From Phycomyces blakesleeanus NRRL 1555(-) (taxonomy: Eukaryota; Mucoromycota; Mucoromycetes; Mucorales; Phycomycetaceae), in assembly GCF_001638985.1 (NCBI RefSeq), contig NW_017265153.1:555776-619775 (forward strand): a stretch of 64,000 nucleotides of DNA. The letters run 5' to 3'. Position numbers and translations under genes: made by a program. Shown here one piece after another: positions 435 through 7,182 of this stretch. Under the pieces are notes generated by a model. The model saw only the letters and a program-made list of their open reading frames with translations, had not been told where the DNA came from and did not search any database. The first letter of the stretch is position 1. The number at the start of each line of letters is the position of its first letter.

Positions 435-2249
435 ATGCGATCTACCAAAATCTTTATAATCTGTGTCATATTTCGACTTGTGAATGCCATATTTACTCGT
501 ACTTACGACAATCCCGATGAATACTGGCAATCACAAGAAGTAGCTCATCAAATGGTGTTTGGATATCCTTTTTCAAATTGTATATATAAATCATCTATAC
601 ATTAATCAAATGCAAAATCATACTTCCTTGACGACTTCACACATATGGCTATGTGACCTGGGAGTGGCACGAAAGGATTCGTAGCTATACTCATCCCCTT
701 GTATTCGCCACACTTTATAAATGTATTCAACTACTTGGCCTAGAAGAGACTGATGCCTTGGTATGTATACAATAAGTATAGATCCATTAATATTAAGAAA
801 TACAAACTTGAATGTCTTTAAATAACTAAAAAAAATAGATCGTTTCTCCTCGCCTACTACAAGGGTTTTTCTCAGCAGTTGCTGACTATGGAACATATAC
901 ACTTGCTATTCGCATATTTGGTATCACAATCGAGCCTTATATCGTAAAGTATTATGAGTATTCTCGAGCATTGCTTGCCAAAAAAAAACTTATATTCTTT
1001 TTTTTTGGTAGTTATTTATGACATTATGCTCATGGTACAACTTCTTTATGGCCGGAAGAACTCTTTCAAATTGCATGGAGATGGTTCTTACTATTCTGGC
1101 TCTCAATTATTGGCCACTACAAAATTGCCCAGATCAAAACTGGAGAAAACACCTGAGATTTAGTCTTGGCCTCGCTTCTTTGGCATGCTTGATGCGACCC
1201 ACAAATGGAATCGTGTGGCTTTTTCTTGGTCTCCATTTACTAGCTAATAGACCTCGTTACAGATGGGAAATCGCGTTTGAAGCGGCCACGATTGTGTAAA
1301 TATTATATACATCTTCTACGTTAGCCTTACTTATATACGTGTAATTTTTAGATCAATTGCTGTGATCATAAACACATTGTTGGACACACATATATACACT
1401 GGATCATGGTATAATGTCTTCCACGAACCCGTAATTGCTCCATTGACTTTCTTTCGTTTAAACGTATTGGCTTCAGTATCTCTGTTTTATGGTGTTCATC
1501 CATGGCATTGGTACATATCCCAAGGATTACCAGTGATGACAACCACACTTTTACCACTTGTGGTGTACGGGGTTTGGCGTATACAAAAGTCATTCAATAA
1601 CAACACCAGCATCAGGGCGCTTCCATTTTTAAAGCTTGTACTCTGGGTAGTTAGTGTCTATAGCTTGCTATCTCACAAGGAATTTCGTTTCTTGTTTCCC
1701 ATATTTCCACTTCTACTGATATTTGCAGCATTCGGCTTGGAACAGGTGCCATCCAAAAAATGGCGTAGATGGATAGTAATAGGCTTAGTAGGTACACAAT
1801 TGCCACTGTCTATTTATTTATCGTTATGGCATCAAAGAGGCGTCATGGATACCATGTTGTGGTTACGTCAAGAAGCTCGGAATTCACCTATATCGATACA
1901 TGTATTGATGCCTTGCCACTCCACACCCTATCAATCTATTTTACACTCCAAATCTACCCCCATAAAATTCTTAACATGCGAGCCGCCACTTGTAGGTCAG
2001 TCGACAGCAGGTTATATGGATGAGGCCGATGTATTTTATGCCGACCCAGTGGCGTTTGTAAGCACTTTTGACACGTGGCCAACCCATATCGTGATGTTTG
2101 AATCCGTTCAAGCTCAACTCAAAAACACTCTACATCAATATGAGATATGCAAACGTTTCTTCAATAGTCATTGGCACGACGACTGGAGACGGCAAGGAGA
2201 TATACTAGTTCTGTGCAGAAATAAAGAGACAAGACAAATTCATGAGTGA
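435..2249 (+). CDS. GPI10: GPI mannosyltransferase 3 (PIG-B/Gpi10), GT22 family
   Basis: Adds the third, alpha-1,2-linked mannose to the GPI-anchor precursor in the ER membrane, from dolichol-phosphate mannose (family knowledge). I read five exons: 435-562, 643-760, 839-943, 1012-1295 and 1352-2249, all phases closing, for about 510 aa. The N-terminus has the GT22 signature YDNPDEYWQSQEVAH followed by VFG-YGYVTWEW. Later come PRLLQGFFSAVADY, LCSWYNFFMAGRTLSN, the luminal GSWYNVFHEPVIAPLTFF segment and HKEFRFLFPIFPLLL, all typical of PIG-B. The protein is polytopic and hydrophobic. The start is the first ATG in frame with the NPDEYW motif. Intron 1 is not GT-AG: it has a U12-type AT-AC architecture (separate entry). 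The remaining three introns are GT-AG of 68-78 nt or shorter. The length fits the family. Confidence 0.9.
563..642 (+). other. U12-type AT-AC intron in GPI10
   Basis: The intron begins ATATCCTTTT directly after GTGTTTGG and ends in AC before ATATGGC. Near its 3' end lies TTCCTTGAC (623-631), an exact match to the U12 branch-site consensus TTCCTTRAC, with the branch A 12 nt from the end of the intron. Removing 563-642 restores the conserved VFG-YGYVTWEW peptide. There is no AG dinucleotide before the required exon boundary, so a normal GT-AG intron cannot do this. Confidence 0.85.
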
Positions 2250-2578: not shown

Positions 2579-5500
2579 TCAGTCGTCCGGGTCGATGATC
2601 CATATACAGCCAGACTTGCTTGCTGGTGTCATGTCTTCAAATTCCTTTGCCGTGACCCACCGCCTCCATGCCTCAAGATATCCCTGTTCGAGATTTCTTG
2701 TCCATCTTTGAGTGTCAAACAACCGACTTTCTTCACGGGTCTCAAATAGACGTTTACGGAGATGCATCAATGCACCATGACCCCGCCGCTGCATTTCGCC
2801 TGTAGAATTAGGAGTATATGTGTAAGATAGTCCCTGGGCTAACTCAACTGCCCTGTCTTCATATTGCTGTTCATTAGAAACCACCATTTCGTCACCAAAT
2901 CCTGTAGCAAGAGCAATACTAGCTCCCACACGCGAGCACATCTTGTGTACATGTTTAGGGAAAGTAACGATAGGAGTGCCTGACCATAAGATATCTGCAG
3001 CTGTGGTATGAGCATTGCATTCGGGTGTATCGAGAAATATGTCAGCCACGCGACCACGATGAATGTGAATATGTTTAGGGGCGACATCTGTAAAAAGCAC
3101 TCGACGAGCAACTTGCGCTCCAGCCCACTCCGTAGCCCGCTGCCGCAGATGTTGCTCACCCGCAGGAGGAAAGCGCAACAGCCAGAGTACTGAGTTAGGT
3201 ACACGTTCGAGAATACGCAGCCACATACGGAATGTCGATGGCTCAAGCTTGTACAACTGGTTAAAATTAGCAAATATAACCATATCATCTGGTATTGTAG
3301 GGAACACCTCACGACGCATTGACCATCGCTTGTCTTCTTCGATAGCCCACTGCTGCTCAGGTGTAGTTCCATTGGTCGTAGAGTTCTCGCGGAATCCTTG
3401 TTTATGATCGTTGACAAAATAAGAAGCAGGCATGTAAATAAATTTTTCAGTATACACAAATTCGTCCGTGTCTTCTTCTGGGTCTACATCGCCTTCAAAG
3501 TCACCGTTTGTGTGGTCCAGTAAGGGGCGGGAGCGCCATAATTCACCACTAACCATCTCGGGTGGACAAACTATAGGATCAGCAATGATCCAATCACACC
3601 AGCCGCCTCCTAACGTGCCGGCAAACCCCATAAAAGAGCACTGGACAGGACTGGGGCGGGCAGCAAATATCTCATTACGGGCACCCTTGGTATATCCGTT
3701 AAGATTGATTAAGACATGGATACCATCTGCTACAATGCGCTCGACTACTTGTTGGTTGGACCATGTTGATACATTCAAAAACTGTTCAGCCTCACGTTCA
3801 ATTTTCTGGCGATAAGGAGAATTATCACTGGGCGTAGTCGCGTAACATATAATTTCATAATGGGTCTTGTCGTGGAATCCAAATACAGATTGCATCAGGT
3901 GAGCCAGTGGGTGGTTATTAAAGTCGGACGACACATAGCCTATTTTGAGGCGTGGGGATGGAGGAGGTGGAGGAGGATATACATGCTCTGGTAACCAAGG
4001 TGCTGACAAAATATTGTGAGATATCCGCAAGGCATTACGATGTGAGATAAGCCGCACTTGACGGGCACTCAGTGGGTAGGTGAACGTATGAAACGGTAGG
4101 ACAGTAGGGACAGGTGGAGCAGGCAGAGATGATGGGATATGTGGCCGAGCGTACTTTTGTATGAGGTTTTGGTTAATAAGCGTAGGGCCAGGATGTGGAC
4201 CATTGTTGACCAAGGTCATGCCATAATTTTCAATATACCAACTACGTTGCATGCGTCGAATAGAGCGTTCTATTAGTCTAATAAGCCATCCGCCCTCATT
4301 CTTCTTCTTATTCTTCTTATTAGCAGTATCAAAGAATGTTAGTCTAGCTCTCCATTGATCGGCAAGTCGCTGAGGAAGAACATCCGTATCATGAGGTACA
4401 GAATTCACCAGACACTCCACTATTTCTTCTCCTACGGTTTTTTCATGACGGCCCTGTTGCTTGAGGATGCCCGAGCCCCATGAAGCACCTTCATCCAATT
4501 GTCGTTCAACAATATCTACTACTCGGCCAATCCATCCACTACGAGCGTTCTTATCTTGGGTACTGGGAAAGAAGTTTCCAAATGCGTCTACAACTCCTTC
4601 ATCTCCAGCACCCCCGCGTCCACGCCAGTCGCACACACCACCGAGTGAGTTCACAAGCCCGCAAATCGCATCCACAAAATTTGGATTAACTTCAACTGCG
4701 CGTCTATACCATTGTACTGAGTCTTGCACACGCCCCATATCTTTGATTGCATTTCCAAGATTAGCAAGTGCAACATCGAAACGAGGATTAAATTCCACAG
4801 CCTTTTCATACATCGACACAGCCTCTGTAAGATGACCCATGTCTTTGAGGAGAGATCCGAGATTTGTATACAAATGCGGATGCCGCGGGTCAAGCTGAAG
4901 TCCGTACATGTAGTACTGCATGGCCAACATTGTTCCAGTAATTGGTGTCGATTGAGACTGCTGTTGAGCAGGGGTCATAAGAGTTACAGATTGTGCTGTA
5001 GCTACACTCGAGATGTTACTGAGGATTATACCCAAGTTATTGGCAGTGGAAGGGCTAGGGTGAAGGGCAAGACTAAGATAATAAAGTGGTAAAAGGAGTC
5101 CTAAGGTGGGAGCAACGGATGTATCGGATGCAGCTGCGGCCAAAGCAGGTGTTGACGGGCTCATAATATCTTGAAATAGCTTAGCAAGGGTAAGAAGAAG
5201 AGTAGATGTTGTCTGATTGGCCTGTTGGACCGTAGAGCTTGTAACTGAGCTTGTAGCAGGGGTTATGATACCAGCTGTGGCGGAACTGTCAGTGTGAGTG
5301 TTCACTCCAAGGCTAGCAAGCCCTGGAAGAAGTCCATGTGTAGTACCAAATGCTATTTGTAGTAAGCGAGATGTCTGCTCTGGCTGCAGAAGTACCAGAG
5401 GTAATGTTGATGGACTAAGTAATTTTCCGTATCGCTTGGCATCGAGTACTTGAGTGGAACCGCAGGCCAAGGCAAGATGATTTGTTAAATTTAATAAATT

Positions 5501-6376
5501 CATGCCAAAAACCAGCTCTAATCCACGTTCATAATCCTTTCGGGCACCTGGTACATCTCCAAGTGCATATTTGAGATTCCCTTTGGCGTAAAACAGGTTC
5601 TGTAGTCGCGGCAATTGGTGTATTGGCAAATGGCGTGGGCGTGACAGCACTTCGCTGTAGGATGGGAAAAAATACTGCTCCACAAATTCGCATACAGCCA
5701 ATGCCTCTTGGTAGCGCGGGCATGCCTTCTCTTCTTTGCTGTCGGAATGTAAAGGCGGTATGGTCGAACAAAGGACACCTACCAAATTTTCAACAGCATC
5801 CCAGTAGGCCGGCCTTAACTTGACTGCTTGGTACCACCATCTTTCAGCTTCTCCTGTACGGCCCATGCTGCGGAGTGTTGTACCAATGTTACTCATTGCC
5901 TCCACATAGTTCATATCATATTTCAGAATTAAATGATTATATTGTAACGAAGATTGATAGTCCTTGAATGTATAATACACACAAGCTAATAGCAATAAAG
6001 TTGGTAAATGGGTAGGAAATGCTTGATGAAGAGAATGTAACAAAGTTAAAAGAGATGGATCCTGGGGAGTGCTGTTATAAAGAGTATGAGCATACTGAAG
6101 CATATTCTCGCGGCACTCCTCGGTCATTTCTGGAGAAGAGAATAGGCCAACTCCTCCCCCACTGGTTGTATTTCCAATACCCGTTGGTGTATAAGGAGTT
6201 GAAGATTGGGCTCTACTTCCAGTATTAGCTATGAAAGGAAGAGTATTTGATGCTCTTCTTGGTACGTAAAGATCATGATGACGATGGTAGCTATGATGAT
6301 TAAGATCAAATGGTTGCATTTTAAGTTGCTGTTGTTGATGATGTTGATGATGTTGATGATGCTGGTGATGATGTTG

Positions 6377-6418
<42 letters not shown>

Positions 6419-6806
6419 TTGTTGTTGTTGTTGTTGTTGTTGAAGTTGTTGAAGTTGTACTTGCTGAAGTTGTACTTGCTGAAGTTGTGTCTGTTGAATT
6501 TGTACTTGTTGTGCTTGTTGCGCATGCTGTTGCTGTACCGCTTGTAACTGTACTTGTTGTTGTTGTTGTTGTATATATTGTTTGTGGAACTCAGGGTCAA
6601 CTCGACTAGAAAGATACTGCCGTCGTTTGGGATCATAATATTGATTTACCCATCCAGAAGAGCCTTCAAAATAATAGCTAGCCAATGTTGGCGATTGAGG
6701 GGGAACCATAATTGAAGGAGAATAAATTTGAGATACAGCTCTCTGTTGCTGCTGCTGCTGCTGTTGCTGTTTTTGCTGCTGCTGTTGTTGCTGTTGCTGT
6801 TGTTGC

Positions 6807-6851
<45 letters not shown>

Positions 6852-7182
6852 AAATGATGTACTTGCTGAGGTTGATTATGGTGTTGATCTTGAGGCTGAG
6901 ATTGCCAGTAAGGGTAAGGCGTGTTTAGATTATGTGCGAGGAATTCATGTTGAAAGTAAGCAAATGCTGCTGGGTCATCTTGTACAATATGATGTAGAGC
7001 CTAATAACTTGTTTATCAACAAAAGGCGAAAAAATAATTTCATTCTTTATTAATTTCATTTTACTCACAGCAAGCGTTTCTGGATTGGCATTGTGATTCA
7101 TTCGTGCACCTCCCATGACTGGAGGTTGAAGGTGTTTATCAGCAGAGAGATTGCCAGACGCACGGTGCTGATGATAAAGCAT
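2579..7182 (-). CDS. UDP-GlcNAc:protein O-GlcNAc transferase (OGT), polyQ-rich, 2 exons
   Basis: Transfers GlcNAc to Ser/Thr of nucleocytoplasmic proteins (GT41 family knowledge). The long exon is 7000-2579; an upstream exon, 7182-7069, joins it through a GT-AG intron (7068-7001) in phase 0, giving about 1511 aa. From the N-terminus: Gln tract 1 (about residues 88-125), Gln/His tract 2 (about 182-270), TPRs (clearest around 740-845, e.g. LGNAIKDMGRVQDSVQWYRRA), then the GT41 catalytic half from about 1055. That half contains KIGYVSSDFNNHPLAHLMQS (with the His matching human H498), INLNGYTKGARNEIFAARP, ANFNQLYKLEPSTFRMW (with the Lys matching human K842) and FLDTPECNAHTTAADILWSG. The key catalytic residues are present, so an active enzyme is likely. 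Codons are a CAG/CAA mix. Starting at the internal ATG 6709 would give 1376 aa but would discard an open 97-codon stretch with the first Gln tract. Confidence 0.92.
6370..6430. repeat. trinucleotide repeat (CTG/TTG), polyGln tract 2 of OGT
   Basis: Run of GCT/TGC and TTG trinucleotides, encoding polyglutamine on the minus strand. The flanking imperfect TGATGT/TGATGC repeats encode His/Gln. Length polymorphism is likely. Confidence 0.85.
6740..6852. repeat. trinucleotide repeat (CTG/TTG), polyGln tract 1 of OGT
   Basis: Nearly uninterrupted GCT and TTG trinucleotides; on the minus strand these are CAG/CAA in the same frame as OGT. They lie upstream of the first ATG of the long exon but downstream of the proposed first exon. 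Confidence 0.85.

What the first reader, a model, noticed from the sequence alone, without database searches (positions are those of the whole stretch)
563..642. U12-type AT-AC intron in a fungal GPI10 gene
The only way to join the conserved peptides VFG and YGYVTWEW is an intron running from ATATCCTTTT to a terminal AC. It carries TTCCTTGAC, the exact U12 branch consensus, 12 nt upstream of its end. All three signals of a minor-spliceosome intron coincide with the protein-conservation boundary. Minor-spliceosome introns have been reported in Rhizopus-type fungi but are lost from most fungi.
Basis: partly seen in the sequence, partly recalled or inferred. Interest (0 to 1): 0.85.

Follow-up and report, generated by a model that had tools for sequence, protein, structure and literature searches.

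The report
Minor-spliceosome intron in Phycomyces GPI10
A mould gene for building the lipid anchors of surface proteins is interrupted by a rare kind of intron that needs a second splicing machine; the call holds up, but such introns were already known in this species, and the main surprise is that animals seem to carry one at the same codon.

Summary
Confirmed. Window 563-642 (80 nt, phase 2) is a U12-type AT-AC intron in GPI10/PIGB of Phycomyces blakesleeanus. Removing it with three GT-AG introns gives an intact 510-aa protein matching Pfam Glyco_transf_22 across the junction. In-frame GT-AG alternatives exist, but each deletes conserved ...YGYVTWEW residues. A further GT-AG intron (540-675) with an out-of-frame ATG reproduces the public P. 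blakesleeanus protein exactly: that model is broken by this intron. P. nitens has the expected junction. The genome holds U6atac and U11 genes above Rfam cut-offs and a U12 gene below its cut-off; U4atac was not found, which is inconclusive. A looser AT-form pattern is enriched genome-wide, 23 vs 5 control. Eleven of 300 homologous protein models read x-Tyr-Pro exactly at this junction (five fungi, six vertebrates), as reading through a phase-2 RTATCC intron start would give; the intron probably predates the animal-fungus split (inferred, no DNA seen). U12 introns and snRNAs were reported for P. blakesleeanus in 2010, so this is a new member of a known kind. No RNA evidence was available.

The parts
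435..562 (+). GPI10 exon 1 (starts at ATG 435; ends ...VAHQMVFG, phase 2)
   Evidence: homologue alignment
563..642 (+). U12-type AT-AC intron, 80 nt, phase 2, 26% GC
563..572 (+). U12-type 5' splice site ATATCCTTTT; with the following bases it forms a predicted 8-bp duplex with the 5' end of this genome's U11 and another with its U6atac
   Evidence: (duplex prediction)
624..632 (+). U12-type branch site TTCCTTGAC; presumed branch A 631, 11 nt before the intron end
   Evidence: duplex with this genome's U12
641..642 (+). 3' splice site AC
643..760 (+). GPI10 exon 2 (its first base completes the split Gly codon; then YGYVTWEW)
761..838 (+). ordinary GT-AG intron (GTATGT...ATAG), phase 0
839..943 (+). 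GPI10 exon 3
944..1011 (+). ordinary GT-AG intron (GTAAAG...GTAG), phase 0
1012..1295 (+). GPI10 exon 4
1296..1351 (+). ordinary GT-AG intron (GTAAAT...TTAG), phase 2
1352..2249 (+). GPI10 exon 5 with stop codon
   Evidence: Pfam Glyco_transf_22 on the spliced protein, residues 6-410
540..675 (+). GT-AG intron implied by the public gene model (protein P0002), with an out-of-frame ATG at 484; judged a prediction artefact
   Evidence: (exact reproduction of P0002; 541-676 gives the same protein)

Best explanation
Window 563-642 is a minor-class (U12-type) AT-AC spliceosomal intron in the Phycomyces blakesleeanus GPI10/PIGB gene (third GPI mannosyltransferase). The inferred mechanism is the standard one. 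U11 pairs with the 5' splice site and U12 with TTCCTTGAC, leaving A631 as the branch nucleotide. U6atac then replaces U11 at the 5' splice site, and splicing joins G562 to A643, restoring the conserved FG-YGYVTWEW peptide. Shown here: the sequence signals, the protein-level junction, the U11, U12 and U6atac gene candidates and their predicted pairing, and the failure of the public GT-AG model. Inferred: the splicing itself, and the descent of the intron from the common ancestor of animals and fungi.
For: Exact ATATCCTT (8/8) and TTCCTTRAY (9/9) with the presumed branch A 11 nt from a terminal AC. The spliced protein is intact at 510 aa, Pfam E 8.9e-100 across the junction. The P. nitens protein (83% identical over the whole length) has the same junction. 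Best GT/GC-AG alternative keeps 34 of 44 flanking residues. The public model is exactly a GT-AG 540-675 with an out-of-frame start. U6atac 58.1 bits (cut-off 33), U11 56.3 (cut-off 39), U12 46 (cut-off 53) in the same genome. Predicted 8-bp duplexes (one G-U each) of U11 and U6atac with the 5' splice site and a 6-bp one (one G-U) of U12 with the branch site. Genome-wide excess of ATATCCTT..TCCTTRAY, 23 vs 5 in the reversed control, including junctions bridged by Pfam DCP2, Npa1 and, below cut-off, LSM12. Eleven of 300 homologous models read x-Y-P exactly at the junction. U12 introns and snRNAs published for this species.
Against: No RNA reads were available. U4atac was not found by the Rfam search at E 0.001 or 10, nor by a 3-mismatch pattern; one search warned that its miss does not show absence, and the weak control rings were in bacteria and archaea, all below the cut-off. 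PMC4133162 (passages) reports U4atac missing in the related Lichtheimia but present in other basal fungi. The U12 gene is below Rfam's gathering score; the same paper says U12 is structurally reduced in all basal fungi. CENATAC (CCDC84) was not found, in a search with no working control. The U11-48K candidate finger resembles Gametocyte-specific factor 1 more than U11-48K, and the same family search also rang in Sulfolobus.
Confidence: 0.96

Rival explanations
1. A normal GT-AG intron (540-664, 555-664, 557-675 or 557-684, or the public model's 540-675 with another start) is used, and GPI10 lacks part of the DEYWQ..TWEW region.
For: The first four exist in the sequence without stops in the GPI10 frame. 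The public protein P0002 is 540-675 joined to an ATG in another frame.
Against: Each of the four, and the GC-AG form 543-664, deletes part of VFGYGYVTWEW, a spacing kept exactly in 253 of 300 homologues including P. nitens. P0002 has no DE-x-W/Y-Q motif, which 277 of 300 carry.
Confidence: 0.02
2. The gene is a pseudogene, or an assembly error put a spurious 80-nt insert there, and the U12 signals are coincidence.
For: No RNA was seen; the frame is interrupted in the raw DNA.
Against: The rest of the gene is intact over 510 codons. The strict pattern has 4 distinct places in 53.5 Mb and 0 in control, and one falls exactly on the needed junction. Protein models of other fungi and vertebrates stumble at the same codon.
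Confidence: 0.01
3. An AT-AC intron removed by the major (U2) spliceosome rather than by the minor one.
For: U2-dependent AT-AC introns exist (established knowledge, not tested here). The table lists 31-32 'other AT-AC' introns in P. blakesleeanus that were not classed as U12.
Against: U2-dependent AT-AC introns typically have a U1-like 5' site (recalled). This one has ATATCCTTTT and TTCCTTGAC and is predicted to pair with the genome's own U11, U6atac and U12.
Confidence: 0.01

Closest known systems
U12-type introns of Phycomyces blakesleeanus and Rhizopus oryzae (Bartschat & Samuelsson 2010, PMC2846911; passages and section 11 read; supplement with the intron list not available)
   Same: Same species; they report 8-9 AT-AC and 8-12 GT-AG U12 introns from ESTs, and U12 snRNAs marked present
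   Different: I could not see whether the GPI10 intron is in their additional file 2
U12-type introns of Rhizophagus irregularis and Basidiobolus (Larue & Roy 2023, PMC10639083; passages read)
   Same: Early-diverging fungi with minor introns, minor snRNAs and the same consensus; they cite about 20 for P. blakesleeanus
   Different: A search of the main text for words beginning with 'PIG' gave 0 occurrences; their data files were not seen
Inferred minor intron at the same codon of vertebrate PIGB
   Same: Same position and phase; read-through peptides K/G-Y-P fit RTATCC
   Different: Inferred from mis-predicted protein models only; DNA not seen, and subtype AT-AC or GT-AG not fixed by the peptides

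Membership tests
U12-type (minor) spliceosomal intron | 5' splice site RTATCCTTT | tested here: met
   ATATCCTTTT at 563-572
U12-type (minor) spliceosomal intron | branch site TTCCTTRAY | tested here: met
   TTCCTTGAC at 624-632
U12-type (minor) spliceosomal intron | short branch-to-3'-end distance (about 10-13 nt, recalled) and no polypyrimidine tract | tested here: met
   A631 to 642 is 11 nt; the sequence after the motif is GACTTCACAC
U12-type (minor) spliceosomal intron | AT-AC or GT-AG ends at a protein-supported exon junction | tested here: met
   AT...AC; junction FG|YGYVTWEW with the spacing of 253 of 300 homologues
U12-type (minor) spliceosomal intron | U11, U12, U4atac and U6atac snRNAs in the genome | tested here: inconclusive
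   U6atac and U11 above cut-off, U12 at 46 of 53 bits; U4atac not found
U12-type (minor) spliceosomal intron | minor-spliceosome-specific proteins | tested here: inconclusive
   One CHHC finger, PF05253 35.2 bits on C3, but the search also rang in Sulfolobus, and the finger is closer to Gametocyte-specific factor 1 than to U11-48K in the PDB; PF14968 none and without working control; other U12-specific proteins not searched
U12-type (minor) spliceosomal intron | spliced RNA dependent on U6atac/U12 | not testable with these tools
   no RNA data and no bench work
GPI10/PIGB mannosyltransferase | Glyco_transf_22 domain and closest match to GPI mannosyltransferase 3 | tested here: met
   PF03901 335 bits, residues 6-410; hits named 'GPI mannosyltransferase 3' such as Spinellus P0004, 59% identical

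The most novel reading that the evidence does not exclude
The intron is an orthologous minor intron kept at the same codon and phase of PIGB/GPI10 since the common ancestor of animals and fungi. It still hides in automated gene models of Mucoromycota, Glomeromycotina, a chytrid and vertebrates, because predictors refuse AT-AC ends.
Probability: 0.8. Interest if true: 0.4.

Novelty: new member of a known kind. Interest (0 to 1): 0.3.

Why it matters
It is a clean example of an ancient minor intron in an early-diverging fungus, in a conserved gene whose public model is wrong because of it. If the same-codon intron in vertebrates is verified in DNA, PIGB becomes a minor-intron gene traceable across roughly a billion years (recalled date), useful for testing why such introns persist. 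In practice, re-annotating this junction would repair GPI10/PIGB models in several fungi and animals.

Tried and rejected
Public GT-AG model: rejected, since it drops conserved motifs and starts out of frame. U4atac: Rfam search at E 0.001 and at 10, and a 22-base pattern with up to 3 mismatches built from complementarity to the U6atac in L009 plus the recalled U4atac 5' end. The pattern gave 27 hits against 5 in the reversed control: one was the U6atac antisense itself, 17 were copies of one repeat, and 9 were others. cmscan of 9 of the 27 hit loci found no U4atac. CENATAC search: nothing, control silent. GT-form pattern: 4 vs 1 control, little power; one of the 4, prefoldin-like, bridges a Pfam domain. 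Of the 22 AT-form candidates other than GPI10, six picked by eye for an open frame across the junction were sent to Pfam: three matched (Npa1, DCP2, and LSM12 with the LSM domain below its cut-off), three did not; the other 16 were not tested further. For those three the GT/GC-AG alternatives are not as clearly excluded as for GPI10 (best keeps 43, 39 and 42 of 44). A compensatory change between U12 snRNA and branch sites was considered and left as a side note (before TCCTTRAY, 12 of 27 pattern hits have A, 8 T, 4 C, 3 G; no control). PDB relatives of GPI10 by sequence: none. Papers: PIGB with 'minor intron', GPI10 with U12, and PIGB with 'AT-AC intron' gave 0; PIGB with 'U12-type' gave 1, judged unrelated by its title only. 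The 2008 snRNA inventory paper is not held. PMC3033335, PMC4133162 and PMC5604411 were checked by passages only.

Full report
What is there. The window lies in a 53.5-Mb genome of 60 contigs at C20:555776-619775. The spliced GPI10 protein is 100% identical over 90% of its length to a Phycomyces blakesleeanus protein (P0002) and 83% over its whole length to one of P. nitens (P0003), so the organism is taken as P. blakesleeanus, Mucorales (for lineage). Exons 435-562, 643-760, 839-943, 1012-1295 and 1352-2249 join to 510 codons plus stop, and the protein matches Glyco_transf_22 at residues 6-410, E 8.9e-100. The first intron, 563-642, is AT-AC with phase 2; the other three are ordinary GT-AG introns.

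Is the intron as described? Yes. It starts ATATCCTTTT and ends CACAC; TTCCTTGAC occupies 624-632 and its A at 631 is 11 nt before the last intron base. The strict pattern ATATCCTT-N25,55-TTCCTTRAY-N4,18-AC returned 5 rows, 4 distinct places, in the genome and none in the reversed control; one of the four is this site. The other three places were not shown to be introns. In the window a relaxed U12 pattern hits only here.

Alternatives. One search lists 70 stop-free combinations of allowed ends, among them 4 GT-AG and 1 GC-AG; these five all delete conserved residues of the block. Some of the 65 with other ends keep TWEW (for example AT-AC 584-642) but insert or delete residues and lack the consensus 5' site. 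In a search within 60 nt the best GT/GC-AG alternative keeps 34 of 44 residues around the junction. The public protein P0002 is reproduced exactly by ATG 484 in another frame plus a GT-AG intron 540-675 (541-676 gives the same protein). It lacks DEYWQ and YGYVTWEW. This is what an annotation pipeline that refuses AT-AC ends would produce (inference). The P. nitens model has FGYGYVTWEW.

Machinery. Rfam searches of the whole genome found U6atac on C7 (58.1 bits, cut-off 33), U11 on C5 (56.3, cut-off 39) and U12 on C1 (46, cut-off 53) (alignments). U4atac was not found (and pattern with cmscan of 9 of 27 hit loci). The tool scores only some candidates, its warning says a miss does not show absence, and P. 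blakesleeanus is marked positive for U12 snRNAs in the table of PMC2846911. PMC4133162 (passages) says U12 has an atrophied third stem and a shorter last stem in all basal fungi, which may explain the low U12 score, and that U4atac is missing in Lichtheimia though present in the other basal fungi; PMC5604411 (passage) reports U4atac and U12 absent from Apophysomyces assemblies. The U11 start AAAAAGGG and the U6atac segment AGAAAGGA each form a predicted 8-bp duplex (one G-U) with the 5' splice site, and U12 a 6-bp duplex (one G-U) with the branch site. A CHHC finger of the U11-48K family was found on C3, but that search also rang in Sulfolobus, and the finger's best PDB relative is Gametocyte-specific factor 1 (E 9.7e-9) ahead of U11-48K (E 0.006), so the protein is undecided. 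CCDC84/CENATAC gave nothing, with no working control.

Other introns of the kind in the genome. ATATCCTT-N28,58-TCCTTRAY gives 23 rows against 5 in the reversed control; the GT form gives 4 against 1. Of the 22 AT-form rows other than GPI10, six picked by eye for an open frame across the junction were sent to Pfam. Three match a domain that spans the junction: Npa1 (58.8 bits), DCP2 box A (111.2) and LSM12 (LSM domain 24.2 bits, below its cut-off of 29.5, with an AD domain downstream); three match nothing. A GT-AG candidate in a prefoldin-like gene spans Prefoldin (51.6 bits, joined by eye). For Npa1, DCP2 and LSM12 the GT/GC-AG alternatives are less clearly excluded. These are supporting, not decisive.

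Same codon in other lineages. Three protein searches gave 300 homologues including the public P. blakesleeanus model (only the best 120 of each list are visible). Counted by motif, 253 of 300 have exactly the spacing of the spliced protein. A looser rule flags 27. Of the 27, three (P0084, P0265, P0270) are rule artefacts and three (P0138, P0172, P0206) look like natural variants, leaving 21 models that fail at this junction. Of those, 11 continue with x-Y-P exactly where the intron would start: Umbelopsis nana (P0030), U. vinacea (P0033), Rhizophagus irregularis (P0036), R. clarus (P0057), Phlyctochytrium arcticum (P0042), rat (P0145), sea bream (P0178), mallard (P0186), storm petrel (P0188), hoopoe (P0190) and a frog (P0196). 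Reading GG or AA followed by RTATCC in phase 2 gives G-Y-P or K-Y-P, so this is the expected trace of a U12-type 5' splice site read through. A second R. irregularis protein (P0050) has the clean junction. The other 10 failures skip the junction or carry other residues. The DNA was not seen, and the peptides cannot tell AT from GT, although predictors would normally have spliced a GT. The reading is therefore an inference: a shared minor intron at this codon older than the animal-fungus split.

What is known. U12 introns in Rhizopus oryzae and P. blakesleeanus, with snRNAs, are in Bartschat & Samuelsson 2010 (PMC2846911; passages and section 11 read). Larue & Roy 2023 (PMC10639083; passages read) cite about 20 for P. 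blakesleeanus and predict 205 in Rhizophagus. Whether this intron is in their supplementary lists could not be checked. Searches of the paper library for GPI10 or PIGB with U12 or minor-intron terms found no paper on it.

Verdict. It is a new or unremarked member of a known kind in a species already known to have such introns. The parts that add something are the demonstration that the public gene model is broken at this intron and the trace of the same intron in other fungi and vertebrates.

Noticed in passing
L011:1501-1796 (G000:C5:1047381-1047676, minus strand): The U11 gene candidate is 296 nt long, with a 161-nt stretch where the Rfam model has 2 positions; it is pyrimidine-rich then purine-rich, looks able to form a long hairpin, and is also hit by microRNA models below their cut-offs. 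PMC4133162 describes an extended U11 stem in Lichtheimia; whether it is the same stem was not tested.
   Followed up: no
L010:1501-1698 (G000:C1:273513-273710, minus strand): The U12 candidate reads GUAAGGAU where the Rfam consensus has GUAAGGAA in the branch-pairing segment, so an A rather than a T before TCCTTRAY would pair best. 12 of 27 U12-pattern hits have that A and 8 have T; the GPI10 intron has T. No control was run.
   Followed up: partly
L035, L028, L038, L070: Further U12-type intron candidates bridging DCP2, Npa1-like, LSM12-like and prefoldin-like reading frames; branch-to-end distances in the three AT-AC ones are 15-19 nt, longer than the 11 in GPI10.
   Followed up: partly
2579-7000, minus strand: 1473-aa open frame: TPR repeats plus Glycosyl transferase family 41 (O-GlcNAc transferase type, recalled) with long polyglutamine runs near its start.
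   Followed up: partly
L071:1420-1584 (G000:C3 near 1113072, minus strand): A CHHC zinc finger of the U11-48K family; two neighbouring open frames have no family match over its cut-off. Could be U11-48K or a Gametocyte-specific-factor-like protein.
   Followed up: partly
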